Shown here: piece by piece, positions 18,673-59,820 of the stretch
How the letters are laid out: the number at the start of each line of letters is the position of its first letter
Position numbering within the stretch: the stretch's first letter is position 1
The notes under the pieces: generated by a model
The model's input: only the letters and a program-made list of their open reading frames with translations
The model's database searches: none
What the model was told of the DNA's origin: nothing
Position numbers and translations under genes: made by a program
Assembly: GCF_004379255.2 (NCBI RefSeq)
Contig: NC_056039.1
Span: 23,325,883-23,389,882, forward strand
Direction of reading: 5' to 3'
Origin: Salvia splendens
Lineage: Eukaryota > Streptophyta > Magnoliopsida > Lamiales > Lamiaceae
Length of the DNA: 64,000 nt

Positions 18673-20925
18673 ATGGATAGAAGTTGGATGTCAAAGTCAA
18701 GAGTAACAACGGAATACCAAAATGGACTTCACTACTTTTTGGACTATGCTTTTCACAACGCAAGCATGCATGATAAGATATTATGTCCATGCAAACGTTG
18801 CAGAATTCGTATATTGGTGAGTAGAGATGATGCATTTGAACATTTGACAGTAGATGGATTTATTCCTGGGTACAACCAATGGATAGCTCATGGAGAACTA
18901 CCTAGTAGACTTTCATCTAGTGGTGAAAATCAACATAATAGTTTGGGCGATGATGATATGCGGGGTTTAGTTCATGATGCATTTGGAGTTCCAAATGAAG
19001 AAGGACATACAGAGGAATATACAGGTGCTCAGATGGATGTAGATTATGCTAATGGGCAAGCAAAAGAATTTTATAAGTTGATTGATAATTCACAACAACC
19101 ATTGTATGAAGGATGTGATAAATTCTCAAAACTATCATTCATAATCCGTTTGTTGCACTTAAAATGTATTGGGAGCTTGAATAATAAAGTATTTGATATG
19201 CTTTTAGAATTATTAAGGGAAGCTTTTCCAGATGCCATGGTTGGCCTACCAAAGTCCTACTATGAAGCCGAGAAACTGATGAAAGAACTAGGACTTGGCT
19301 ACGAAAAAATCGATGCTTGTCCAAATGACTGCACTTTGTATTGGGGGGAAAATGAAAGAAAAACTTCATGTGACACATGTCATCAGCTAAGATGGCGTAC
19401 TTCAGATAAAGATCCGACAGGTGAGAAAAGAAAGATTGCTCAAAAGGTATTATGGTATTTTCCGCTCAAGCCAAGGTTACAGCGGTTGTTCATGTCTACA
19501 AAGACGGCATCCCACATGAGATGGCATGCTGAAAATCGCACGAAGGATGGGTGTATGAGACACCCTGCCGATTCCCCAGCATGGAACACATTTGATCGCT
19601 TACATCCTAATTTTGCTAGGGAATCTCGCAATGTTCGATTGGGATTGGCAGCAGATGGAATTAATCCCTTCAAAAATATGAGTGTGTCGCACAACACATG
19701 GCCTGTCATATTATTTCCCTATAACCTTCCTCCGTGGATGTGCATGAAAGAGCCTTATTTGATGTTATCTCTATTGATTCCTGGTCCATTAGCTCCGGGG
19801 AATAATATTGATATTTATTTGCAACCCCTAATTGCCGATCTAAAGGATTTGTGGGAAGTAGGAATTGAAACGTATGATGCATCAAAAAAGCAAAATTTTC
19901 AGTTACGTGCTTCATTACTATGGACAATCAGTGACTTTCCAGGATATGCATATTTATCTGGATGGAGTACCCAAGGTGAATTTGCATGCCCAGTTTGTAA
20001 TAAAGAAACTCACTCTCTTAGATTGAAACACGGCGGGAAGTATTGCTACATGGGGAATCGTAGATTTTTGCCCAAAGATCATGAGTTTCGGAAGAATAAA
20101 CGACACTTTGATGGCACATTTGAGTATAGACAAGCACCGCAACAACAATCTGGTAACATGGTGATGGATGAGCTGAAGGACTTCACAATTAAATTTGGTA
20201 AGCCAGTTAAAGGTAATCAAAAGCTTTTCGGTTGGAAAAAAAAGAGTATATTTTTTGAGCTACCATACTGGAAAGATAATGTTGTCCGCCACAATCTTGA
20301 TGTCATGCACACAGAGAAAAATGTTTGTGAGAGTATATGTGGCACATTGTTGGATTTAGACGGTAAGTCTAAAGATAATTATAAATCACGGCAAGACATG
20401 GAACAAATGGGAATTAGGCCTGAACTTCATCCGATTCCAAAGGGTTCTGGAAAATTTTATTTACCTACAGCAGCTTTTACAATGAGCAGAACGGAGAAAA
20501 CTACATTTTGTCAGGTTTTGAAAAATTTAAAAGTTCCCGATGGTTATGCATCAAACATCGCAAGGTGTGTTCAGCTAAAACCACCAAAATTGTTAGGCTT
20601 GAAAAGTCATGACTATCATGTAATGATGCAACAATTGTTACCTATAGCCTTGCGAAACACACTCTCCAAGACAGTACGCTCACCTTTAATTAAGCTCAGT
20701 CAGTACTTTAGAGAACTTTGTTCTAAAGTAATTTGTCCCGCTGACGTCATTCGTTTGGAGAAAGATATTGCCGTGGTACTTTGTCAATTGGAGAAGTTAT
20801 TTCCACCATCATTCTTCGATGTAATGGTGCACTTGACTGTTCATTTGGCTACAGAAGTGAGGTTATGTGGGCCTGTTCACTATCGTTGGATGTATCACAA
20901 TAGTTTTACATACACCTCTAATTAA
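18673..20925 (+). CDS. TNP2-like CACTA transposase
   Basis: The 750-residue open frame matches the plant En/Spm TNP2 family, which cuts CACTA ends. Residues 1-75 form the transposase-associated domain (MDRSWMSKSR...FLDYAFHNAS...ILCPCKRCR...DGFIPGYNQW). Residues about 155-600 form the Transposase_21 core: CPNDCTLYWGEN, the CDTCHQLRW zinc-like motif, LRMRWHAE-type motif (HMRWHAENRTKDG), ADGINPFKNMSVSHNTWPV, LLIPGPLAPGNNIDIYLQPL, GYSTQGEFACPVCNKET-type finger and YCYMGNRRFLP. Then HNLDVMHTEKNVCESICGTLL precedes the DUF4218-like C-terminal part (DYHVMMQQLLPIALR...PPSFFDVMVHLTVHLATEV). It stops at RWMYHNSFTYTSN, short of the usual end of DUF4218, so the C-terminus is truncated or completed by an unseen exon. 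The rest of the frame is open, which is notable for this window. Confidence 0.92.
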   Translation: MDRSWMSKSRVTTEYQNGLHYFLDYAFHNASMHDKILCPCKRCRIRILVSRDDAFEHLTVDGFIPGYNQWIAHGELPSRLSSSGENQHNSLGDDDMRGLVHDAFGVPNEEGHTEEYTGAQMDVDYANGQAKEFYKLIDNSQQPLYEGCDKFSKLSFIIRLLHLKCIGSLNNKVFDMLLELLREAFPDAMVGLPKSYYEAEKLMKELGLGYEKIDACPNDCTLYWGENERKTSCDTCHQLRWRTSDKDPTGEKRKIAQKVLWYFPLKPRLQRLFMSTKTASHMRWHAENRTKDGCMRHPADSPAWNTFDRLHPNFARESRNVRLGLAADGINPFKNMSVSHNTWPVILFPYNLPPWMCMKEPYLMLSLLIPGPLAPGNNIDIYLQPLIADLKDLWEVGIETYDASKKQNFQLRASLLWTISDFPGYAYLSGWSTQGEFACPVCNKETHSLRLKHGGKYCYMGNRRFLPKDHEFRKNKRHFDGTFEYRQAPQQQSGNMVMDELKDFTIKFGKPVKGNQKLFGWKKKSIFFELPYWKDNVVRHNLDVMHTEKNVCESICGTLLDLDGKSKDNYKSRQDMEQMGIRPELHPIPKGSGKFYLPTAAFTMSRTEKTTFCQVLKNLKVPDGYASNIARCVQLKPPKLLGLKSHDYHVMMQQLLPIALRNTLSKTVRSPLIKLSQYFRELCSKVICPADVIRLEKDIAVVLCQLEKLFPPSFFDVMVHLTVHLATEVRLCGPVHYRWMYHNSFTYTSN

Positions 20926-46972: not shown

Positions 46973-47645
46973 ATAATTCAGCGGGATATTCATTAAAACC
47001 GATTGACCTTCCATCCAATCACTCTCTCTCTCTCACAATACATCTATCATCCCTCAACCCACGATCAAAACCCTTTCTCTCTCATTTCTAGACCCTAGCC
47101 GTTGCAAAATCGGAGAAACTTCACTGGAAAAGTCGATTTCTGCCGGATTAACGCCTTTCGTTCAACGCAGCAACGTTTTAATCGGTGGAAGATTTGCAAT
47201 CGACAATAAGGTCGGGTTCCAAAGTTTTGATTTTTGGTAATAGAGTAGTCCCGGAGTCGATTTTAGCCGTAAAAATACCATAAAGTTGACGATTCAGAGT
47301 TTTCTACTAAATGCGGTCACTATTTTGGCAAACATTTGGTCGAGTTGATTGGTAAATCATAACAACTTGTTCATTTGTTGTAGGTTTCTCTTCCTTATTC
47401 TCTCCTTTTAGTTCATCACTGCTTTAGATGTGTGTATTGGTCGATTTTAGTTATCCGACACACTCTTACGATTTTTTAACATATGCTGTCGATTTTTCTG
47501 TAAAGCATGAAATCGTGTGCATTTTTGCTAGGGTTCTGTCCATTATTGAAGTTTAGGTAATTAATAGTTTACAATTATGTATTGGGCGATTTGGTAGAGA
47601 AAATCTTATCCGATTTTAATTTTTGGTTCGTCTCACAAATCCAGA

Positions 47646-48439
47646 ATGACGAAAAGAGGTCGGCCTTTCAAAAGCCAACCCACCCAGACTGCAGGTGAGC
47701 AATCTCTTGCATTTGCCTTTTGAATTCTTGGAGTATTTGTACATTATTGTAGGGATTGGTGTACATTATGTTTTTTGTTTGAAGTTACATCAATCGGTTA
47801 CATAAAATGCTTGTAATTGAGTGAATGTTATATTCATTTGTGCATTATTTGATGTCATTTGTACAATGTTGTAGGGAGTGGTGTACATTATGTTTTTTTG
47901 TTTTAAATTACATCAATCGGTTTCGTAAAAGGTCAATGGTTGAGATAATGTTATATTCATTCGTGCATTATTTACTTCCTTTTGTATATTATACAGTTAG
48001 TAGTGTGCATTATATAATATTAATGCGATACATTATTGATTTTTGGACAGCAGCGAAGCAGCCTAGGTTGGACATTGACGAAGCGGTGGATGATGTTCTT
48101 CCAATTGCGATTGCGCAAAAGTTCAATGAGAGATTGGCTGAGCAAAGGGCCGAGACGAGTACCTCTCATGAAGACATAGAGAAAAGGAAGCCGAGGGGGA
48201 AGAAAGTCGACCATCTCAACTGTCGACGGACCCCAACCGAGTTCCTGAACTGTTTAAAAAGCCTAACTCCACGGCAGAAGGAAGTCGTTCATGAACTGGG
48301 TTTCAAAGCTATCCTCCATTTCAACATAAAGGAGATTCCGGGATACATAGCCGACTTGTGGTGGATGATGTTTTTGATAACTCATGTTGGAAGGGAAAAT
48401 AGTCGACTTGTGGCTTGGTCTGTTTTGAACAATATCTAG
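47646..48439 (+). pseudogene. N-terminal fragment of a TE-associated gene with AT-hook
   Basis: Exon 1 (47646-47694) encodes MTKRGRPFKSQPTQTA with an AT-hook core (KRGRPFK). It ends at a good donor (GCAG|GTGAGC). Exon 2 (48051-48439) follows TTTTTGGACAG and reads AAKQPRLDIDEAVDDVLPIA, then RRTPTEFLNCLKSLTPRQKEVVHELGFKAIL. This helical block resembles the N-terminal part of the long proteins carried by Ulp1- or PMD-bearing plant transposons. After IADLWW the frame drifts and ends. A CT-rich leader (47015-47100) precedes it. The intron contains a duplicated ~122-bp segment (47738-47985). Family assignment is tentative and the remaining exons are absent. Confidence 0.5.
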
Positions 48440-48922
48440 TGTGTTGAACTTCTTGCAAACAGAATCATATTTTGGTACTAGTGTATGATGTCATTAACAC
48501 AAAACATATAATGGATGTAAAGTACCGAATAATGTCACGTTACTGCTTAATAATGTAAAAAGGGAAGAAAATAATGTAGAACAAGTTAACTGGATTTTAA
48601 TATTAATGTACAACAAAAATGAATAGAAATTGTATAATGGATGTAATTAACCGAATAATATACAGAATGAGCTTATTAATGAACTGTACTGGAATAATAA
48701 TGTACAGTAAGTTAAGTCCTTGTGAACAATAATGAACAACTTCATGAATAATAATGTACGTTAATAGTTTAATAATGCAATGTTATAATGTATAATGTAC
48801 AGAATGTGTCTAATAATGAACTATACTCGAATAATTGTGTACAGTAAGTTAAGTGGTTGTAAACAATAATGTACAACTTCATTAATAATAATGTACATTA
48901 ACAGATTAACAATGTAAAATTA
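48440..48922. other. AT-rich spacer with repeated AATAATGTAC words
   Basis: The words AATAATGTACA, AATAATGAAC and GTACAGTAAGTTAAG recur more than ten times, with an approximate 100-bp duplication (48690-48760 and 48820-48890). No gene is seen. The stretch lies between two oppositely oriented TE-gene fragments. Confidence 0.6.
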
Positions 48923-49375
48923 TTATGCATAAAATATTGACAGTGGTAGGACTAATAAGACTAAGACAACGAATTGAATAATAAGATTAAACCGAAAAAC
49001 AAAATACATCAACATTTCCTTCAACACCTTAAAGGTAAGTGTGGGGCCTATATTAGCCTTAGAACAGTCAAGAATGAATTTGTGATGTACATCATCCAAC
49101 TTTCGATTAAGTGCCATAAAATGTTGATTCTCTAACTCAACCATATAATGGTTATGAACCTCGTTGAACTCCTGAATAATATAACCCGGAAGTCCTCCTT
49201 CCGAGAAGAACTTGAACGATATAATCGCTTTACAACCACAACACTTGGATAACCGTATGCGTTTCATAGAAAAACCAGAATGTGCATTCAATTGGTCATC
49301 CTCGTTCGACTTCTTGCTGTCTTCCCTATTGCATATAACATAATACCAAGTGGTAACACCGTCCGTCTTCCTCAT
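48923..49375 (-). pseudogene. FAR1-type DNA-binding domain fragment
   Basis: The frame reads TTWYYVICNREDSKK, then RIRLSKCCGCKAIISFKF with the Cys cluster, FNEVHNHYMVELENQHFMALNRKLDDVHHKFILDCSKANIGPT and FKVLKEM. These are FAR1/FHY3-family motifs, a WRKY-GCM1-like zinc finger derived from Mutator-type transposases. The C-terminal end is hydrophobic read-through of AT-rich DNA, so the true coding ends near 49020. The MULE catalytic domain is not seen. The frame faces the AT-hook gene fragment to its left (convergent). Confidence 0.7.
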
Positions 49376-49520
49376 TCCTTATTTGCGCATATTATAAAAC
49401 AGCGCAGGCATATACATCGTAAAACGTGAAAGCAAAATCTAGTCATTGGAACTTCTGACCAACGACGGGCTTAATTCTGGAGAACATTCAGGTACAACCA
49501 CCACTGTATAAAATCACAAA

Positions 49521-50135
49521 AAACGGCTCAGCAAACATATACATTACATATTAGAAATCGTCCATTAAAGAGTCAATAAAAACCATTACACAGTAATATA
49601 TGCACATTATGTTTATCAGTTAAAACTACTCCCTAGCCGAGATGATATCTAAACCCTAGATGATTGACTGAAACTCGTTCACTTTAGCGATGATTGTGTT
49701 ACTTACTAGGTATTATACCCTAGCCCCAAGGATTGATAAACCCTTGGAGAATAAATGAAACGTGCGTCAAATAATAAAAAATTGTCAATCTTATATTACT
49801 TAAGAAATTGTGTAACACAACCAAACAAAACGGCTCATAAAACATATACATTGCAGTTCACACATCGTCCATTACAGAGTCAATAACATCCATTACCCAG
49901 TAATATTTGTACATTATGTTTATCAGTTAAAACTACTCCCTAGCCGAGATGATATCTAAACCCTAACGGAATGCCTGAAACTCGTGGACTTTGGCGACGG
50001 TTGTGTTACTTACTACATACTAGACCCTAGCCCCAAGGATTGATAAACCCTTGGGGAATACATGAAACGTGCGCCGAAAAATCAAACACGGCCAATCTTA
50101 AACTAAACCCTGAAATTGTATAACACATATAAACA
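49521..50135. repeat. 307-bp tandem duplication
   Basis: Copies start at 49521 and 49828 with AAACGGCTCA, and a third start is at 50136. Shared blocks include AAAACTACTCCCTAGCCGAG and CCCCAAGGATTGATAAACCC. They are diverged by scattered changes. No reading frame is conserved. From 50136 to 50488 the minus strand looks like a leader region of the FAR1 fragment, and no other gene is seen. Confidence 0.85.
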
Positions 50136-50879
50136 AAATGGCTCAGAAAACCTTATTGCAATGAACAATTACTCCACCAAATCGGTTTTTAAGTGAACAA
50201 ATCAGTTTAATAATCAACATAGGAACAAATTAAATTACCTTCTTCCATTGTTGAAGAAAACGAAAAGGATGCACGACTGCTCCAATAAAAGCGATTTTGT
50301 ACGAGGAAAAAATGAGGAAATTTTAGAGACAATGTGTCGAACAGCGGTTGTCTTCAATGGAGAATGTTTGGAGAAGAAATGATGAAAGAGAAGAAATATT
50401 TGTGTAATTCCAGAACAAAACCGCTGCTGTCTTTTGATGGAGAAAATTAAGCAACTTACCATAACCAACTCAAATGTATATATATATATATAGGGTCATG
50501 ATCTATGGCAAACACCTCTTAACCATATAACTAGAGAACAAATAATAGCCACAAGATCAAAAAAATCAAGGGCTAGTATTAATTTTTGAATTTAATGAGA
50601 TATTAGTTCCCTCAATCACAAATTTACTCCACAATAATAAGGCGGGGGTATAATGGTCATTGCACATCCAAAATTAGATTACATCATTGGCATTTGAAAA
50701 AGAAACCGCATTCTTCTCTTCTCCTCCTCTTCCTTCTTCTGCAAAATAGTTCTCAGCTCTCCTACCGCCGATTCGTCCGATTGAAGAGGAATTCGATTGG
50801 AAATTATCAATATTTTCGCGATTCAAGTGACTCTCTTTCCCCGACGAAGGAATCTGCATCGGTGTCTCCAATCATCACT

Positions 50880-51056
50880 CTTCCAGCGGCCAACAACACC
50901 GCCACCGTCAACAAGGCGGCGGCGGCGCTCCGGAAGGAGCTCATCGCGGTGATCAAGGAGAAGAAGGAGGCGATGGCCAAGGGAGGGCCGCTCTACGACA
51001 TCTTGTCGCACATGATCGTGGCATCTGACCCCGAGCGGGAACACACAGATCTATGA
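50880..51056 (+). pseudogene. Captured cytochrome P450 fragment (CYP716/CYP85-clan-like)
   Basis: The frame reads TLPAANNTATVNKAAAALRKELIAVIKEKKEAMAKG, then GPLYDILSHMIVASDPEREHTDL and a stop. The RKEL.A.IKEKK...DILSHM..ASDP pattern is the region before the I-helix in CYP716-type triterpene oxidases and related clan-85 P450s. Heme-binding, I-helix and K-helix regions are absent. The GC content is far above the element's AT-rich ends. The upstream in-frame part (from 50694) looks like a leader. It is probably a fragment picked up from a host gene. P450 identity is likely; the subfamily is a guess. Confidence 0.5.
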
Positions 51057-51292
51057 TATAATTTAGCCTGCATTTCCCAATTTATCTTCTGTTTTTCTTA
51101 GTTTTGATTTCCTTTAATTAGGGAATTAACATTAGGTGATAAGTTATCGTTGCAATTTTTATGATGGGATGTAGTGTAGTATTTGAATTTTGTGAGATTT
51201 TAGCTATGCATTTCAGATGTAGCCCATTTCTGTTTCTTCTTGCTCTGATCTAATTATAATATCAATGTTGAATTGTCCCAAAAATAATCATG

Positions 51293-52170
51293 CTAAGAGT
51301 GAAGAGTGAAGTAAAATCATGCTAAGAGTGATGTGTTTTGTAAACAAGAGTGAAGTAAAATCAGAACAAGAGTGATGTGTTTTGTGAACAAGAGTGAAGT
51401 AAAATCAGAACAAGAGTGAAGTGAAATCAGAACAAAAGTGATGTGTTTTGTGAACAAGAGTGAAGTGAAATCAGAACAAGAATGATGTGTTTTGTGAACA
51501 AGAGTGAAGTAAAATCAGAACAAGAGTGATGTTTTGTAAACAAGAGTGAAGTAAAATCACAATAAAAGTGATGTGTTTTGTGAACAAGAGTGAAGTAAAA
51601 TCATAATAAGAGTGATGTGTTTTGTGAACAAGAGTGAAGTAAAATCAGAACAAGAGTGATGTGTTTTGTGAACAAGAGTGAAGTAAAATCAGAACAAGAG
51701 TGATGTTTTGTAACAAGAGTGAAGTAAAATCAGAACAAGAGTGATGTGTTTTGTGAACAAGAGTGAAGTAAAATCAGAACAAGAGTGAAGTGAAATCAGA
51801 ACAAGAGTGATGTGTTTTGTGAACAAGAGTGAAGTGAAATCAGAACAAGAGTGATGTGTTTTGTGAACAAGAGTGAAGTGAAATCAGAACAAGAGTGATG
51901 TGTTTTGTGAACAAGAGTGAAGTGAAATCAGAACAAGAGTGATGTGTTTTGTGAACAAGAGTGAAGTAAAATCAGAACAAGAGTGAAGTGAAATCAGAAC
52001 AAGAGTGATGTGTTTTGTGAACAAGATTGAAGTGAAATCAGAACAAGAGTGATGTGTTTTGTGAACAAGAGTGAAGTGAAATCAGAACAAGAGTGATGTG
52101 TTTTGTGAACAAGAGTGAAGTAAAATCAGAACAAGAGTGATGTTTTGTAAACAAGAGTGTAGTAAAATCA
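51293..52170. repeat. Two-flavour 22-bp tandem array, about 40 units
   Basis: Two 22-bp units alternate: AACAAGAGTGAAGTRAAATC+AG and AACAAGAGTGATGTGTTTTG+TG. They share their first 11 bases and differ in the second half. Occasional AA runs break the strict alternation, and a few units are shortened to 20 bp (ATGTTTTGTAA). No spacers separate units, so this is not a CRISPR array. It lies wholly within the inverted-repeat element. Confidence 0.95.
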
Positions 52171-52695
52171 CAAGATACATCAGTAACATTAAACGTAGAC
52201 GGAAACTAACTATATCGAAGACGAATCTTAGAGCCTATAGCCACCGCGCCCCGCTCTTGTTCCGAAACTCCGCTTCTCTTCTACGGCAGCTCATCGTTGC
52301 GTCTCCTTACCCGCCGACGCTGATTCCGGTGAGTCCGACGTAGAGGTAGGTTTTGATTTGGGGTTTTTTCAGCATTGGCGCGACGATTGAATCCGCCAAC
52401 AGCCCCTCCGCCCGATCGCCTTTGCCAGCTCCCCCACCGCCGCCAGTATCCTCTCCGGCGCCACCCCCAACTCAGAATTACGATTTGGAAGAAGAAAGGA
52501 TCGCAGATTTGGAAGATTTCGCGTAATTTGATCGCATGTTTTAATTCAAAAAGTAATTTCCAAAAATACCCTCAGCATATTTTATTTTATTAAAATTAAT
52601 AATATTTGTTCCATTAAGATGTGTGGCTGAGATTTGTTCTCTAGTTATACCCTTAAAAATAGTTATATCTTGATCACTACCCTATATATATATAT

Positions 52696-53069
52696 GGTTG
52701 CGTTAAAGATAGAACCATTCTTAAGTGTAGAACCTAGAATTCTACATATTTTATTCATTGGATGAGGAAAAAATGACGGTCAAGATTAAAAATCATACAT
52801 ATTAGACTATGTTTTCACGACATTCCGGACTCAACATGTGAAAAAACTCACATGTTGATGGAAGAATGAATGAAACGAAGAAGAGTCCATGCATGCTTTA
52901 TTTTTTCACTTCTCTGCATTCACCCATTAATAATAGTTTTGGTTGTAATGGGAAGTTGCTGTGCAAATCAACACCATTGGATTAAAAGATCTAACGACCT
53001 CCGTTTGGCATTTGTTCTACGTTTAAGAATGGTTCTACGTTTAAGAATGGTTATATCTTGATCACAATC
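52696..53069. mobile_element. Second (TA)n-bounded MITE, adjacent
   Basis: The left end GGTTGCGTTAAAGATAGAAC...CCATTCTTAAGTGTAGAAC is inverted at the right as GTTCTACGTTTAAGAATGG and TTATATCTTGATCAC. (TA)n flanks both sides, and the left tract is shared with the larger element. The right arm has the repeated word TTCTACGTTTAAGAATGG. It is 374 bp with no coding. Confidence 0.7.
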
Positions 53070-53255
53070 ATATATATATATATATATATATATAATCAAT
53101 AAAAATAAAATTTAGTGGCTGATAGTTAAAATTAAACATATCACAACTAACAATTATTTAAAAGTATAAAACTAAACACAAATTATTAATTTGTGTGGAC
53201 AAAAAATTATAGATTTAATGTATAACAACAATTAATGTTCGCAATATTTCATTTA

Positions 53256-53328
53256 AGATCATGTGGTAGAGTGGCAGAGATGTTGGTATCTTACCTAGAG
53301 GTCTATGGTTCAATCCCCTCTAGTCTCA
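53256..53328 (+). repeat. tRNA-derived sequence (SINE head or tRNA pseudogene)
   Basis: An A-box-like TGGTAGAGTGG (53263) and a good B box GGTTCAATCCC (53307) are spaced 44 bp apart, as in tRNA genes and tRNA-derived SINEs. I could not fold a sound acceptor or anticodon stem, so a functional tRNA is unlikely. No SINE tail or flanking duplication was identified. Confidence 0.5.
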
Positions 53329-53349
53329 TATTTTAAACAAGCATTTTAA

Positions 53350-53512
53350 ACATAAAAACCGGTTCATGGTTTCCGGTTCAACCGCTCTGACCGGACTGTT
53401 CAAGGCGGCCTAGCATACTAACGGTTTTTGGGGCCCAACCGGACCGGACCAGCTGCCGGTCCGACCGGTCGAACCGGTCAGTCCGGTCTGGTTTTTAAAA
53501 CATTGATCTATA
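53350..53512. mobile_element. Possible hAT-type MITE fragment
   Basis: It is dense in CCGGTTCAACC, GGACCGGACC and GACCGGTCGAACCGGTC words and ends GGTTTTTAAAACATTG. That last word, complemented, is like the start of some plant hAT MITEs. The left end is not certain. Confidence 0.4.
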
Positions 53513-54562
53513 CTATCTTTTTTAACTACTTAGAATTTATTTTTTGGGTATACAATTAAGAATGTCATTCAACTCCTTTGAAATGCAAGATTTCCATTTA
53601 ATTTTAGTCAGATTCACGCGTGCTACTAATTAGCGATATGTTTATGTATTTTGTTTTATTTTTCAATTGCTATTATTTTCTCTCTTGATCACTTTGATAA
53701 TATTTTACTATTTGCGACAATCTGTTTTTTTATGAGTTAGAATATTGGATTGGATAGAAAGTAACACATAAGATCACTTTTGACTCGAATAGCCTGTGGG
53801 TTAGCTCGAAATCCGAAGATTTGGGATTATGGCCGAAAATTTATAACCCGAAAAATTCACAACCCAAATAACCCGTACCCTAATAGCCCGACAACCCGAG
53901 TTGATTAGCCCAATTAACATTCCTATAGACTATGCTAGGAAATCATCAGTGAAATAATGTAAATTTGTGGAACCAAATATAATTTCCAATATAGTTGGAC
54001 AAATAATTAGGAAATTAATTTACATCCATTCTATATCTTGAGACTAGACACTTGGCATGAAAACATTTGGATCCAAACTTATAACTGCAAGTGATTGCAA
54101 TATGATGATCGTAAGATTGAAAATAATTATTTACCCATCGATGATCTCATTATTGCAATATTTATAATTCCATGTCATTCGCTGTTTCATTAAAAAAACG
54201 TGTTTTTTAAAAATAAAGTACATAAAGCTACAATGCATTTTTCTTTTCTTTTTAAAAATATTTATTGGTACCTTTTATGGGAGTACTATCTTATTTTGTG
54301 GATATGCTTGTTGCATTATTATGTTGTTTTTACATTAAAGTTAGTTTTAGTACCTAAAACGTGTGGCATATTTTTCCCTTTTGGATGACCACATTATTAA
54401 TTTTATTCTTTGGGCATTTTTTTTTATTTTATCCTCATTATGCATGCCTATTTATAAATAAATCGAATATGATCCATCATAATGAAACTAATCAATATTC
54501 TATCAATTTTTATTAAAATTTGTGATACATTTAGGACGTGCACTATTTAGGGATGAAGAGTA
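53513..54562. other. Intergenic AT-rich DNA, no gene seen
   Basis: The stretch contains AACCCGA-type simple words around 53780-53900 and otherwise AT-rich sequence. The open frame at 54200-54388 is low-complexity and has no supporting features. Confidence 0.5.
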
Positions 54563-54784
54563 CTTCCTCCGTTCCATGTTAATTAAGTCATTTTTCTATT
54601 TTGGAAATTTCCAACATAATTGAGTCATTTGTATTTTTGGTAGAACGTAATCCTCTCTCTTACTTTGTTCTCTCTTCATCTCTCTTACTTTATTATCTCA
54701 TACTTTAGTCACCATCCACTTAAAACACTATTATTAATCCTCATGTCAAAAAGAAGTGTGTCTATTAACAAGGAACAGAGGGAG
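54563..54784. mobile_element. Stowaway MITE upstream of the ARM gene
   Basis: CTTCCTCCGTTCCATGTTAA at the left and the complement of AACAAGGAACAGAGGGAG at the right form the inverted repeats. TA duplications lie at 54561-54562 and 54785-54786. It is 222 bp. It ends about 60 bp before the likely TATA box of the ARM gene, so it lies in that gene's promoter. Confidence 0.85.
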
Positions 54785-54840
54785 TATAAGATAGTGGTAA
54801 TTATTTTTCTTGCACTAAAATAAAAATTAGATTTTCATAT

Positions 54841-54850
54841 TATATAAATA
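54841..54850 (+). promoter_or_regulatory. Probable TATA box of the ARM-repeat gene
   Basis: TATATAAATA lies 399 bp upstream of the ATG. A leader of about 370 bp, rich in CT and CA, would follow. It is the best TATA-like match in the region, but nothing else fixes the transcript start. Confidence 0.4.
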
Positions 54851-55248
54851 GCTGGGGAATTCATCTAGAACTTAGTTTCCTTGTATTTTGGGCACTTAAA
54901 AAAGAAAAATATCTCTCACTTTGACCAAAGAAAGGTGTGTGTGTGTGTGTTTTGCCTTGGTGGAAGTTGACTTAGTCTTCTAAACTAAGCTTTCATATTC
55001 ACACAAACAATACAACAATTAATCACTTTCACCAATAAGTAATCAATATTTTCCAACTGAAAATGACATCTAAGATGCTTACATTGCAACCATACAGACC
55101 ACAAAACTCCAATTCTTTCTATTTCTTCTCTCTCAACAACTGGAAATTACATAACAAACAACAAGAATAACAAATACAAGAGTTGTGTTGAAACCAAGTC
55201 TTACTATTTTTCTCTTTCTCACCTCTCAATCTGCTTCAAAACACTCCG

Positions 55249-57850
55249 ATGGAGGACTTCGAGTCATCGACGATAAACTCGAGATCATCATCATCCATAC
55301 AAACAGAGATGATTGCAGAGTTCATCGGTAAACTGAGTCCGATTATGAGCGAGATCAGAGGCTGCGTCGAGGCAGCAGAGGTGCCAGCCCTGGAGAAGGC
55401 GATCGCCTCGTTGGAGAGCGACTATGATCGTGCGAAGGCGGCTGTGGAAAGCCCTCCCAAGAACATAGAGAGCCTCATACAGAATCTCGGGAGGTCGTTG
55501 GGGCTCACTCTGTTTGCAAGCCACGAAGCGCCACTGTCGAACAAGGACAAGGTCGAGGCGCTCTGCCGGGAGATGATGAACGTGCGCTTCGAGTCGAGCT
55601 CGTGGGAGTTTGCCAACGAGGCCGTGGAGACAGAGTTTGAAACAGAGGAGGAAACAGGGGAGGAAACAGGGGATGAAACAGGGGAGAAAACAGGGGAGAT
55701 CGTGGAGGAGACGGGAGACTTGACGGTCGATGAAGCCATTTTGGAATTAAATTATGGGAGAGAAGAGGGATTCAAGAATGCTTTGTTAGTTTTGGATGGA
55801 TTCTTGAAAGATGGGATGATTTCGAGTGAGATGATTTTGGACGAAGAAGTGGTGCGGATCTTGTGTAGTCGATTGGCTTCGTGCAAGGGGAACGACCGGT
55901 TGATCATAATTCGAATGTTGAGATATATTGCTCAACACAATCACCACCACAAGGTACTCTACCTTTAGTTGAATGCCACCATTTATCTTCTCTTCTTTTA
56001 ATTTAAGCAACATAGTGTGCAGGAAAAGATGAAAGATTTGGAATTCTTGTCCGAGTTGGTGAAGTCGTTGGCACGAGACGCGGAGGAGCAGAAGGAGGCG
56101 GTCGGGCTTCTGCTCTGCCTCTGCGACGACGATGCAGGAATCATCCGGAGAATCGGGAGGATACAAGGTTGCATAGTGATGTTGGTAGCAATCTCAAATT
56201 TAGATGATGAAGAAGAAGCTTCCCATCATTCAAGAATGCTGCTAAATATCATGTCAACCAACACTCAACATGCTCTTCACATGGCTGAAGCTGGCTATTT
56301 CAAGCCATTGATCACGTATTTAAAACAAGGTAATCTCTTTATATTTCTTTCCTATATCAAGATTTTGTTTTTTTTGTAAGTGAAAGTGTAATTAATTTCC
56401 ATTTCCAGGTTCAGAAATGAGCAAGGTTCTGATGGCAAGCGCGGTGTCGAGATTGAAGCTAACGGACCAAAACAAGGCAGCCTTAGGGGAACAAGGGGCG
56501 ATCGAGCCCCTGGTGAGCATGTTCAAGGAAGGAAACCTAGAGGCGAAGCTGTCCGCCTTGAACGCCCTAGAGAGCATATCCAACCTAAACTCGAACATCC
56601 AAAGGCTGATCGACTCTGGGATGGTGTCGTCCCTCTTGCAGCTACTCTTCTCAGTGACATCCGTCTTGATGACACTGAGAGAGCCGGCCTCGGCCATCCT
56701 AGCAAAAGTGGCCCAATCGGAGACCATACTAGTCAAGCACGACGTTGCGCAGCAGATGCTGTCACTCCTCAACCTCTCCAGCCCCGTCATCCAAACCCAT
56801 CTTTTGGAGGCCCTAAACAACATAGCCTCACACCCAGCCGCTTCCCGGGTCAGGAAGAGGATGAAGGAGAACGGCGCGATCCCACTCCTCCTCCAGTTGG
56901 TCACCGAGAGGGACGCCCGGATCAGGAATGGCGCCCTCAACCTCATCCACTCGCTTTCCGAATCCACACAAGAGCTCACACTGGAGCTAGACCAATCCCA
57001 CATCCACACCATTGCAAACATAGTGCTAACAACAAAATCAGATTGTGAGAAGGCTGCAGCCCTCGGAATCCTCGCAAATCTACCAATCAACGAAAACCGA
57101 GCCACTGAGATCCTCAAACAAGCCAACATCCTACCTTTCCTAGCCTCAACCACAACCACCACTTCAACCCCATCATCAGTCATGCTATCGGAGAGCATTG
57201 CTTCCTTCCTGGTTCGTTTCACGAATCCAAGCGACAAAAGGCTGCAGCACTACGCGGCTGAACACGGAATATTCCCTCTCCTCATCAAGCTACTCACAAG
57301 CACCTCACAATGTGCCAAATCCAAGGCAGCACTCAGTTTATCCCAACTATCACAAAACACAACAAACATGACAAAATCGCGAAAACTCAAGTGGCTCTGC
57401 CTGCCTCCCTCGTCCGATTCCTTCTGCAAAGTCCACGACCGATACTGCACAATGAAAGGCACCTTCTGCTTGATCAAAGCAGGGGCCATCAATCCATTAG
57501 TGCAAATTCTCCAAGGCGAGGAGAGAGGCGCGGATGAGGCTGTGTTGGGCTGCTTGTCGACGCTTCTTAGAGACGAGATATGGGAGAGCGGGTGCAGGCA
57601 TCTGGTGGAGGAGTCCGTTGTGCATCCGATCATCCGAGTCGCGGGATGTGGGAGCTTCAAGGCTCAAGAGAAGGCCTTGTGGATGCTGGAGAGGATTTTT
57701 AGAGTGGAGAGTCATAGAGATGAGTATGGCGAGTCCGCGGAGAATGTGTTGATCGAGGTGGCTCAGAATGGCGATCCGATGCTTGCGCCGGCCGTGGCCA
57801 AGGTGTTGGCTCAGCTGCAGCTGTTGCAGCCGCAGTCTAGTTACTTTTGA
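55249..57850 (+). CDS. ARM-repeat protein of the PUB43/44 U-box family, lacking a U-box
   Basis: Three exons: 55249-55953, 56023-56329 and 56409-57850. The introns (69 and 79 bp) have clean GT-AG ends, and the joined frame is open for 817 codons. Residues 1-125 are a helical N-terminal domain (IAEFIGKLSPIMSEIRGCVE...LEKAIASLESDYDRAK). Residues about 125-160 are an acidic low-complexity stretch of GEETGDETG-type units. From about 165 to the end run armadillo repeats: GFKNALLVLDGFLKDGMI, AVGLLLCLCDDDAGIIRRIGRIQGCIVMLV, AALGEQGAIEPLVSMFKEG, LREPASAILAKVAQSE, LKLLTSTSQCAKSKAALSLS, KALWMLERIFRVESHRDEYG and the family's C-terminal LLQPQSSYF. Family members usually carry a U-box with CP.T and DPV motifs that recruits E2 enzymes; none is visible here, so ligase activity is doubtful. 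Role by family: defence, senescence or ABA signalling. Function inferred only from homology. Confidence 0.88.
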
Positions 57851-59820
57851 GACTAACTCAAGAAATGCATGCTTTGTAGTATATTTTTGGTTTGTTGATC
57901 ATTTTTTTTTGTTGATAGATTGTGATTGATTCAAATTACATTAAGATGTAGTGTTTTGTATACATATTTCATGTTGGGAGGAAGTGAAAAAAATGATCTT
58001 GTATTATTTGTAGTGTTCATAGTTTGATGATATTGGGATTTTTTTTCTTAGAGTAAGAATTATAGATTACCTATTTGTATATTTTTGTCATCAAATGTTT
58101 ACAGAAATAAATTATGTTCTAGGCATGAAGCGTATAAGTTAGAAATTTCACAATCTAAAGGAGGCAACAAAATTTCGACATTTCTAGTTTTCAAAGAAAG
58201 TCATTGGCTAAAAAATATCGATGTTGAGGTGTAAAGTCAGAGTCTTCATTAGAGATGGAGGTCTTTCTTAAAGTTAAAAGAATAAGTTGGAAATTGTATT
58301 TTTTTTTAGTGAAGTTTCAAACAATACAAATTTTAGTCCACTGCTTCATCCGTTCCAACTAAATTGAGTCGTATTCATTTTTCCCAATAAGTCGAGTAAT
58401 TTTCCATTTTTAAAACATTCACAAGTTTCGAAACCCTAGTTGGAGATAGGAAAATGGTGAGAATTATAAAAGAGAACACGAATGAGACAATATATTTTAT
58501 TTATAACTCAATGAATGTTTAACTAAGCAAAAGCATTTTATAATATCTTCTAACACTCTATGCGGTTCGACTCCTTATTATTCGACTCTTGAAAAAATCG
58601 ACAAAGAAAAATCTGAGATGATAAATATAAAATCTAATGTATGAATTAAAAGGATATCTCACTTTTGTATGTTAACTGTTTTCAAACAAACTCCGGACAT
58701 TATGAAATTACACTAGCGTTCAGACACCATTCTTATGTTCACATTTAGTATATGTCGTTTGTTGAGCCACATGGAGCAAGAAGAAAGGGACTTAAATCCC
58801 TAACTATCAACAAATATCTTTTGTGTTTCAACATTTGGGTGATTCAGGAAAATTATAATTTCTTTGTTCTTTAAAAATAACAACTATAATGGTCTTTCCC
58901 TTAAAATTGAGCACTTTCCATATTAAAAAATTTCTCTTTAATAAGGTGAAATTCATTCTCTACTAACAATATTTTAATTATATATTATAGTGTAATGTTA
59001 AAGTGCAAATAACACCTTAGTGTATAAATAAGATCAATAAATGAGTATAGACCTCCAAATAAGTGGATAAGATGAAAGCTTCCAGATATAAAAGTATAGT
59101 GCATAAAATACGTTGTCTCTCAAGTGGACAGTTTTTCTTACTCGGCCAGGATAGGATCTAGGCAGTAGAAGGAAATGAGCCTAAATCGATCGCCTTCCTT
59201 CTTTTTTTTCAAAGAAAAAAAGCAGTACAAGGAAACTTTTATTTAAGTCAGATGAGAATCAACAGTTACTGGTCGTTCTGACGCGTTCTTAACCATCTTG
59301 ATAAAAAAAAAGCAAAAACCTATCTATATCTAAAGGGGAGCCTAGTTTAAGATGCCAAACAAATGATATACAGTACGTAATATATTAATTTGTTAGAATC
59401 TAGTAATTTTCGTAGTTATCGTGATACCAACACATATCACGCGAGTATATCAATAAAATTATATTGATATTGTACATGTATTATATAGATATGTATTATA
59501 TAGACATATATTAATAGACATGTTGATATTAAATAGTTTCTCAACATATATATGATTCAAATAAAAATAATCAATTTTTATCATCTGAGCATATGCAATT
59601 AGGATCTGGGTTGAAATTCTTATAAGGTTTTACCTTTAATTTGATATATTTTTGCAAAAAGGTAATTTAAATTGAAAGTGTTATGTGAATTTAAATTTTG
59701 AGATTAGTTTTAGGAGAGAAAATTTTGGTTAGTTTTAAATACCACATATAAGGATGAGTGAACTGGAAAGTATCTAGTGAATGCAGGTTGCATACTGACG
59801 GTAACTTTTGATAATAAATA
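57851..59820. other. 3' flank of the ARM gene and intergenic DNA
   Basis: The probable 3' untranslated region runs to about 58030 (AT-rich, AATAAA-like words). A degenerate Stowaway start (CTTCATCCGTTCCAACTAAA, 58345) and a remnant like the MITE at 164 (AATAAGGTGAAATTCATT, about 58938) are visible. No gene is seen. Confidence 0.5.

What the first reader, a model, noticed from the sequence alone, without database searches (positions are those of the whole stretch)
50489..52686. (TA)n-bounded inverted-repeat element with a captured P450-like fragment and a large internal array
A 2.2-kb unit has ~64-bp inverted ends that share an exact inner word (TATAACTAGAGAACAAAT). It lies between (TA)n tracts, has no transposase, and holds GC-rich gene-like pieces in an AT-rich frame. 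One piece resembles the pre-I-helix region of CYP716-type P450s. Known Pack-MULEs carry gene fragments and Micron MITEs live in (TA)n; a combination of both with an 880-bp two-unit minisatellite is unusual and may be an undescribed family.
Basis: partly seen in the sequence, partly recalled or inferred. Interest (0 to 1): 0.8.

Follow-up and report, generated by a model that had tools for sequence, protein, structure and literature searches.

The report
Young TA-targeting transposon with swappable cargo
This is one copy of a young, many-copy plant transposon from scarlet sage that lands in TA repeats and carries scraps of host genes around a variable mini-repeat, and sister copies hold different gene scraps beside the same mini-repeat, which makes the exchange of transposon cargo open to study.

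Summary
Host: Salvia splendens. The element is 50493-52682 (2190 bp), between TA tracts; a second TIR element (52696-53069) shares the right tract. All 40 scored hits (of 1526 first-look candidates) are close copies in TA tracts. One imperfect site shows a 10-bp target duplication. The P450 fragment is real: 40 of 41 residues; the donor is the C22 homoeolog, 132 of 137 bases, 39 of 39 copies tested being closer to it than to C21. New: the same left arm plus minisatellite is joined to at least six different right arms, among them a BAHD-acyltransferase piece and a sucrose-transporter piece. Within one right-arm type the last 145 bp forms haplotypes 7.5% apart on interiors 0.8% apart. At one locus a tandem duplication has fused the minisatellite to a neighbouring MITE. 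Best reading: a non-autonomous, TA-targeting MULE of the SaTar/MuTAnT kind with Pack-MULE-like cargo and arm exchange at or beside the minisatellite. No transposase search was run; no empty site was found for the one copy tested.

The parts
50477..50492 (.). left (TA)8 tract at the insertion site
   Evidence: 39 of 39 copies have at least 3 TA units on the left
50493..52682 (+). whole element, 2190 bp, GGGT...ACCC (arbitrary orientation)
   Evidence: 35 of 39 copies start GGGT (4 TGGT) and 29 of 34 right ends measured are ACCC
50493..50556 (+). left terminal inverted repeat
   Evidence: 43 of 64 ungapped matches to the right end; shuffle test
52619..52682 (-). right terminal inverted repeat
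   Evidence: the outer 145 bp shows several haplotypes among copies
50906..51042 (+). captured fragment of a CYP716-family P450 gene (inside the stretch of residues 1-318 that matches as one piece), with a 1-bp insertion near its 3' end
   Evidence: 132 of 137 bases to C22 homoeolog, 122 of 132 to C21; 40 of 41 aa
51302..52170 (+). minisatellite of two alternating 22-bp units (44-bp period)
   Evidence: TRF; unit map
52205..52530 (.). GC-rich right cargo, type B, donor unknown
   Evidence: 119 first-look candidates in the genome, 40 of 40 scored at 99-100% (query 52205-52520); no Pfam match above cut-off in the frames scanned
52683..52695 (.). TA tract shared with the next element
52696..53069 (.). 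second TIR element (M, 374 bp) stacked beside the first; its right end shares GTGATCAAGATATAAC with the large element's right end
   Evidence: a 98% full-length copy abuts another large copy in L047
53070..53094 (.). (AT)n tract at the far side of the second element

Best explanation
A non-autonomous, (TA)n-targeting transposon of the MULE kind (SaTar/MuTAnT-like) that has picked up host gene fragments like a Pack-MULE and amplified recently in Salvia splendens. A transposase supplied in trans (inferred, not seen) recognises the GGGT...ACCC ends and inserts the element into TA tracts with a 10-bp duplication (one informative site). Elements of several families stack end to end, linked by TA tracts (shown). 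The left arm and the central minisatellite are kept; the cargo between the minisatellite and the right end, and the right end itself, have been replaced repeatedly (shown as a pattern). The likely route is template switching, microhomology joining or unequal exchange between stacked or related copies at the minisatellite or just beyond it, followed by transposition of the new combination (inferred; one locus shows a fusion that fits a tandem duplication with 5 bp of microhomology).
For: Copies: all 40 scored hits (1526 first-look candidates) match the left 214 bp, listed as 100% after rounding. Ends and TA tracts. TSD: L035, TATTTATATA on both sides; the joined query maps to its two flanks with a 10-base overlap. 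Flanks: no pair among 496 right-flank pairs shares 450 bp or more. Age: A arm 215-770 differs by 0.73% on average among 28 type-B copies. Donor: C22 homoeolog. Right arms of 40 copies: B 28, C 2, D 2, E 2, F 2, G 2, H 1 (right end not found), one cut short (L064); C, D, F and G are each seen at two loci on different contigs. D encodes a BAHD-like piece (PF02458, 1.2e-9); G a sucrose-transporter piece (8bb6, 7e-12). Arrays of C and D share a left unit pattern (read by eye). E arms equal bases 116-288 of the neighbouring 288-bp MITE X, and the three L044 left arms share four private changes. Right-end haplotypes 7.45% apart on interiors 0.82% apart. Stacking: GATC within 24 bp beyond the tract in 23 of 76 flanks (17 of 70 without L044) against 119 of 1834 background 24-mers.
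Against: No autonomous partner was found; no transposase search of the genome was run. The TIRs are short and only 67% alike, unlike the long similar TIRs of most Pack-MULEs (recalled). Only one of 40 sites is informative for a TSD. No empty site was found for L035, the only copy tested. The 40 copies were the best-scoring ones for the left end, so older copies and other left arms are under-sampled. No copy was seen with type-B cargo behind a different left arm: 21 of 40 B hits have the known left arm (19 by position, 2 read) and 19 were not examined. Some left flanks share repeats: 45 of 630 pairs have a hit, 25 with 450 bp or more summed over overlapping hits. The two right-end haplotype groups also tend to differ in array map, so they may be old lineages with otherwise near-identical bodies rather than end swaps alone. 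Arm replacement could be fresh gene capture rather than exchange between elements. E copies are not shown to be mobile.
Confidence: 0.8

Rival explanations
1. The right arms differ because each was captured afresh from host genes by gap filling or template switching beside the minisatellite, with no exchange between elements.
For: Right arms C, D, F and G join the array at different unit phases, and two hold pieces of unrelated host genes. Gap filling and replication fork switching are proposed for Pack-TIRs in animals (PMC8277862, abstract and outline seen).
Against: The arms for which a right end was found, except E, still end in related 64- to 145-bp right termini. Type-B copies with near-identical interiors carry right ends 7.45% apart. 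E fits a fusion with a neighbouring element that is still in place.
Confidence: 0.3
2. The copies are spread by segmental duplication or are a dispersed satellite, not a transposon.
For: An internal tandem array, a local tandem triplication at L044, and shared repeats in some left flanks (45 of 630 pairs with a hit).
Against: Copies on 18 contigs have matching ends inside TA tracts; no pair among 496 right-flank pairs shares 450 bp or more; L035 shows a 10-bp duplication.
Confidence: 0.03
3. It is a Helitron or another non-MULE element with minisatellite and gene fragments.
For: Gene fragments and minisatellites occur in Helitrons (recalled).
Against: Inverted ends and a 10-bp target duplication; Helitrons lack both (recalled).
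Confidence: 0.04

Closest known systems
SaTar elements of guayule and rice (PMC5907723; passages seen)
   Same: Non-autonomous MULE-like elements with imperfect TIRs, in TA and other microsatellites, stacked without nesting; 10-bp duplications outside microsatellites in guayule; about 30% linked to another element.
   Different: Described at about 380-1900 bp; three of five rice families are called non-Pack-MULE and the passages seen mention no captured genes. Here the 34 copies measured are 1.8-3.2 kb, with gene fragments, a central minisatellite and alternative right arms.
MuTAnT of Medicago truncatula (PMC4486113; parts 1 and 2 of 4 read)
   Same: GGGG-starting ends, (TA)n insertion, 9-bp duplications at imperfect sites, proximity to genes.
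   Different: 200 bp to 1.6 kb foldback elements without captured genes in the parts read; a mudrA-like autonomous partner is known there and not here.
Micron of rice
   Same: (TA)n-inserted short element, regarded as a non-autonomous MULE (PMC5907723).
   Different: About 380 bp; sequences not compared here.
Pack-MULEs (reviewed in PMC13317346; passages and section 7 seen)
   Same: Host gene fragments between TIRs, moved in many copies.
   Different: TA-tract targeting, short weak TIRs and the shared minisatellite.
Hybrid Pack-CACTA elements of Arabidopsis (as told in PMC13317346 section 7)
   Same: Neighbouring elements give rise to a new element with two different ends.
   Different: Another superfamily; there by aberrant excision with terminal deletions, here the seen fusion fits a tandem duplication with microhomology between a minisatellite and a stacked MITE.

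Membership tests
(TA)n-targeting non-autonomous MULE (SaTar/MuTAnT) | Insertion in TA microsatellites | tested here: met
   39 of 39 left flanks with at least 3 TA units; 37 right flanks measured, all reaching an AT tract within 4 bases, 5 of them imperfect or out of phase; 2 right ends not found; the two E ends were located by their TA tract, and L057's is that of its inverted neighbour (L064 in TA tracts)
(TA)n-targeting non-autonomous MULE (SaTar/MuTAnT) | Imperfect terminal inverted repeats | tested here: met
(TA)n-targeting non-autonomous MULE (SaTar/MuTAnT) | 8-11 bp target duplication at non-perfect sites | tested here: met
   10 bp at L035, the only informative site; L037, also imperfect, shows none, its end being altered
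(TA)n-targeting non-autonomous MULE (SaTar/MuTAnT) | Modular stacking of unrelated elements across TA tracts | tested here: met
   window pair; X and M elements beside copies; 23 of 76 flanks
(TA)n-targeting non-autonomous MULE (SaTar/MuTAnT) | TIRs shared with an autonomous MULE | not tested
   genome search was mostly unavailable; no transposase search was run
Pack-MULE | Host gene fragments between the TIRs | tested here: met
   P450, BAHD, sucrose transporter
Pack-MULE | Long, highly similar TIRs (feature recalled) | tested here: not met
   43 of 64 positions; so it is not filed as a classical Pack-MULE, only as Pack-MULE-like
Micron | TIR sequence similarity to Micron | not tested
   no Micron sequence was held
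Helitron | No TIR and no target duplication (recalled) | tested here: not met

The most novel reading that the evidence does not exclude
The minisatellite, together with TA-tract stacking, works as an exchange point that lets one transposon family keep a proven left end while trying out different cargo arms and right ends, so that gene-fragment capture in plant MULEs proceeds by modular recombination between stacked elements rather than only by one-off capture.
Probability: 0.35. Interest if true: 0.75.

Novelty: new variant of a known kind. Interest (0 to 1): 0.52.

Why it matters
How MULEs acquire new internal sequence is still called perplexing or not understood (PMC8277862 abstract; PMC3310237 passages). 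Here is a young family with near-identical left arms and array maps that can be read unit by unit, two known donor homoeologs for the P450 piece, several alternative right arms at two loci each, mosaic right ends, and one locus where a fusion is seen beside its parent elements. That makes the order of exchange events testable with one assembled genome and a few sister accessions. The same family also scatters a length-variable minisatellite through the genome.

Tried and rejected
Rejected: chance inverted ends; no other copies; P450 likeness by chance. Led nowhere: Rfam on 47000-58000 (none); plasmid blastn (none); Pfam and PDB searches of the P450 piece (none); unpadded 149-aa search (72 candidates, none at E up to 10); Pfam on right-cargo frames (one weak match below cut-off); Pfam on eight pieces from other right arms (one above cut-off, the BAHD piece; one weak match below; six none); right flank search, which hit other repeats; empty site of L035 (only its own two flanks and one weak partial match). 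Errors of mine: one search returned no units, repeated; one search timed out, redone. mis-set some ends (L035, L037, L040, L047, L057, L063) and missed five loci (L055, L059, L062, L066, L067), seen; one search misses L064, whose data come. The unit maps and left-arm change lists cover 35 of the 40 copies. Literature: ten searches; no held paper has Pack-MULE, microsatellite and TA repeats together; Pack-MULE with minisatellite gave nine listings, of which I saw only the starts of the abstracts.

Full report
What was checked. The element at 50493-52682 has inverted ends (43 of 64 ungapped matches, an exact 18-bp word), lies between TA tracts and holds a 44-bp-period array made of two alternating 22-bp units. 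A second inverted-repeat element of 374 bp (52696-53069) follows across the shared TA tract and ends in another AT tract; its right end shares GTGATCAAGATATAAC with the right end of the large element (local score 43 against a maximum of 30 in 1000 shuffles; two matches to the end pattern with up to 3 mismatches, none expected). Its own two ends score 44 against a maximum of 37.

Host. The U-box frame at 56417-57850, 3.7 kb downstream, matches a Salvia splendens protein at 100% over 477 residues, and the contig lengths given for two Salvia splendens proteins equal those of contigs C8 and C21 of the window's own genome. The assembly size (805.9 Mb) fits the published 807-Mb tetraploid assembly (PMC8408255, passages seen).

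Copies. A search with the left 214 bases gave 1526 first-look candidates; the 40 that were scored all match. I examined all 40 (20 stretches, of which L044 holds three copies, 17, and the window). Of 39 copies (L064 is missing there), 35 start GGGT and 4 TGGT; of 34 right ends measured 29 are ACCC. All 39 left flanks are TA tracts. One copy, L035, sits in an imperfect tract and shows the same ten bases on both sides; the search with joined flanks returned both flanks with a ten-base overlap and no uninterrupted homoeologous site. Flanks 100-1000 bp away were compared: 11 of 496 right-flank pairs and 45 of 630 left-flank pairs have a hit; none on the right and 25 on the left reach 450 bp summed over overlapping hits, so some left neighbours are shared repeats (L044 left out). 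Among 28 copies of the window's type the left arm from base 215 to 770 differs by 0.73% on average, far below the synonymous divergence of about 0.08 given for the last genome duplication (PMC8408255). The sample is biased to copies with well-kept left ends.

The P450 piece. The padded search returned 14 proteins at E up to 10, all 14 with the P450 domain; the best, from Salvia splendens, matches 40 of 41 residues. Two close homoeologous genes exist, on C21 (100% over residues 1-317) and C22 (93% over 1-318). The element carries bases 50906-51042 of this gene with one inserted base; identity is 132 of 137 to C22 and 122 of 132 to C21, and 39 of 39 copies tested are closer to C22. The capture therefore came from the C22 homoeolog or its close relative. 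It is a short fragment, and the open frame upstream of it has no ATG, so it is not a working enzyme.

Right arms differ. Beyond the array the 40 copies carry: type B, as in the window, 28; C 2; D 2; E 2; F 2; G 2; H 1 (right end not found in the stretch, so it may be an interrupted copy); and one copy cut short inside the array. For D, one of the two copies (L053) leaves the shared arm after 587 bases and has no right end in the stretch. D contains a piece that matches the BAHD transferase family (PF02458, E 1.2e-9; weakly also spermidine hydroxycinnamoyl transferase, E 0.0016), G a piece that matches a solved sucrose transporter (E 7e-12). C, D, F and G were each seen at two loci on different contigs, with about 98% identity within a type, so they are families, not single accidents. 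The arms with a right end found, except E, keep a related right terminus. Next to the truncated copy L057 lies an inverted element, L057b, with a related left end (85.7% over 226 bases), a different left cargo, the array partly inverted, a different right cargo, and a right terminus 96% like the window's. So the left cargo can vary too, on the evidence of one element. In the other direction, no B cargo was seen behind another left arm: 21 of 40 B hits have the known one, 19 were not examined.

Array maps. Read as unit codes, 27 of 35 arrays begin with the same three codes; by eye, B, E and H arrays form one group, C and D share a second pattern, F and one G copy a third; the two G copies share the arm but not the map. 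Two left-arm changes (218T, 577G) are in 7 of 7 copies of C, D, F and G and in 0 of 28 others (five copies, L055 among them, are not in that call). Array length varies from 458 to 1008 bases in 27 B copies, L040 with an insertion left out.

Mosaic right ends. In 28 B copies the right cargo differs by 0.92% on average (0.63% without CpG sites) but the last 145 bases by 4.4%. Two haplotypes (13 and 11 copies; four copies fall outside; 1.3% and 0.9% within) are 7.45% apart while the interiors of the same copies are 0.82% apart, against 0.74% and 0.85% within the groups. I read this as replacement of the end on near-identical bodies. The array maps of the two groups also tend to differ, so the exchange may have involved the array as well, or the groups may be lineages; this is not settled.

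A fusion beside its parents. At L044 the order is MITE X, E, E, B, each linked by TA tracts. The E arms are bases 116-288 of X at 99-100% identity. The three left arms share four private changes, and the E arrays match that of the adjacent B copy including rare units. A tandem duplication running from inside X to near the end of the array explains this; the junction shows five bases common to both parents (read). This yields new elements with the old left end and the right end of X. Whether they move is unknown. X and the window's second element occur near or beside other large copies too, and 23 of 76 flanks show a GATC just beyond the tract against 6.5% (119 of 1834) background; six of the 23 belong to L044, leaving 17 of 70.

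Reading. It works like a (TA)n-targeting non-autonomous MULE (SaTar, MuTAnT) with Pack-MULE-like cargo. Stacking, TA targeting and the ten-base duplication are seen here and fit the published pattern; the transposase in trans is inferred. Long similar TIRs, usual in Pack-MULEs (recalled), were tested and not met. The arm differences are a shown pattern; exchange at or beside the minisatellite is the inferred mechanism, fresh capture the main rival. In the held library I found no account of a TA-targeting Pack-MULE with a shared minisatellite (searches, listings only); most subscription papers are not held.

Noticed in passing
window 48923-49375 (-): Fragment with a weak FAR1 DNA-binding domain (E 2.3e-05, below cut-off), about 1.1 kb left of the element; may be a MULE-derived remnant.
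   Followed up: no
window 53098-53506: Repeat of many copies with tRNA-promoter-like boxes (looks like a tRNA-derived SINE by eye) directly beyond the AT tract.
   Followed up: partly
window 18673-20925 (+): Open tnp2 transposase frame of a CACTA element (Transposase_21, 1e-98).
   Followed up: no
L067, oriented left flank, and L059: Three and two tandem copies of the 288-bp MITE X linked by TA tracts before the large element.
   Followed up: partly
L057, inverted neighbour L057b: Two large elements lie in inverted orientation across a TA tract, and the minisatellite of the second is partly inverted.
   Followed up: partly
L040: Array interrupted by other sequence between array units.
   Followed up: no
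window 49520-50151: Two copies of a 307-bp tandem repeat just left of the insertion site.
   Followed up: no
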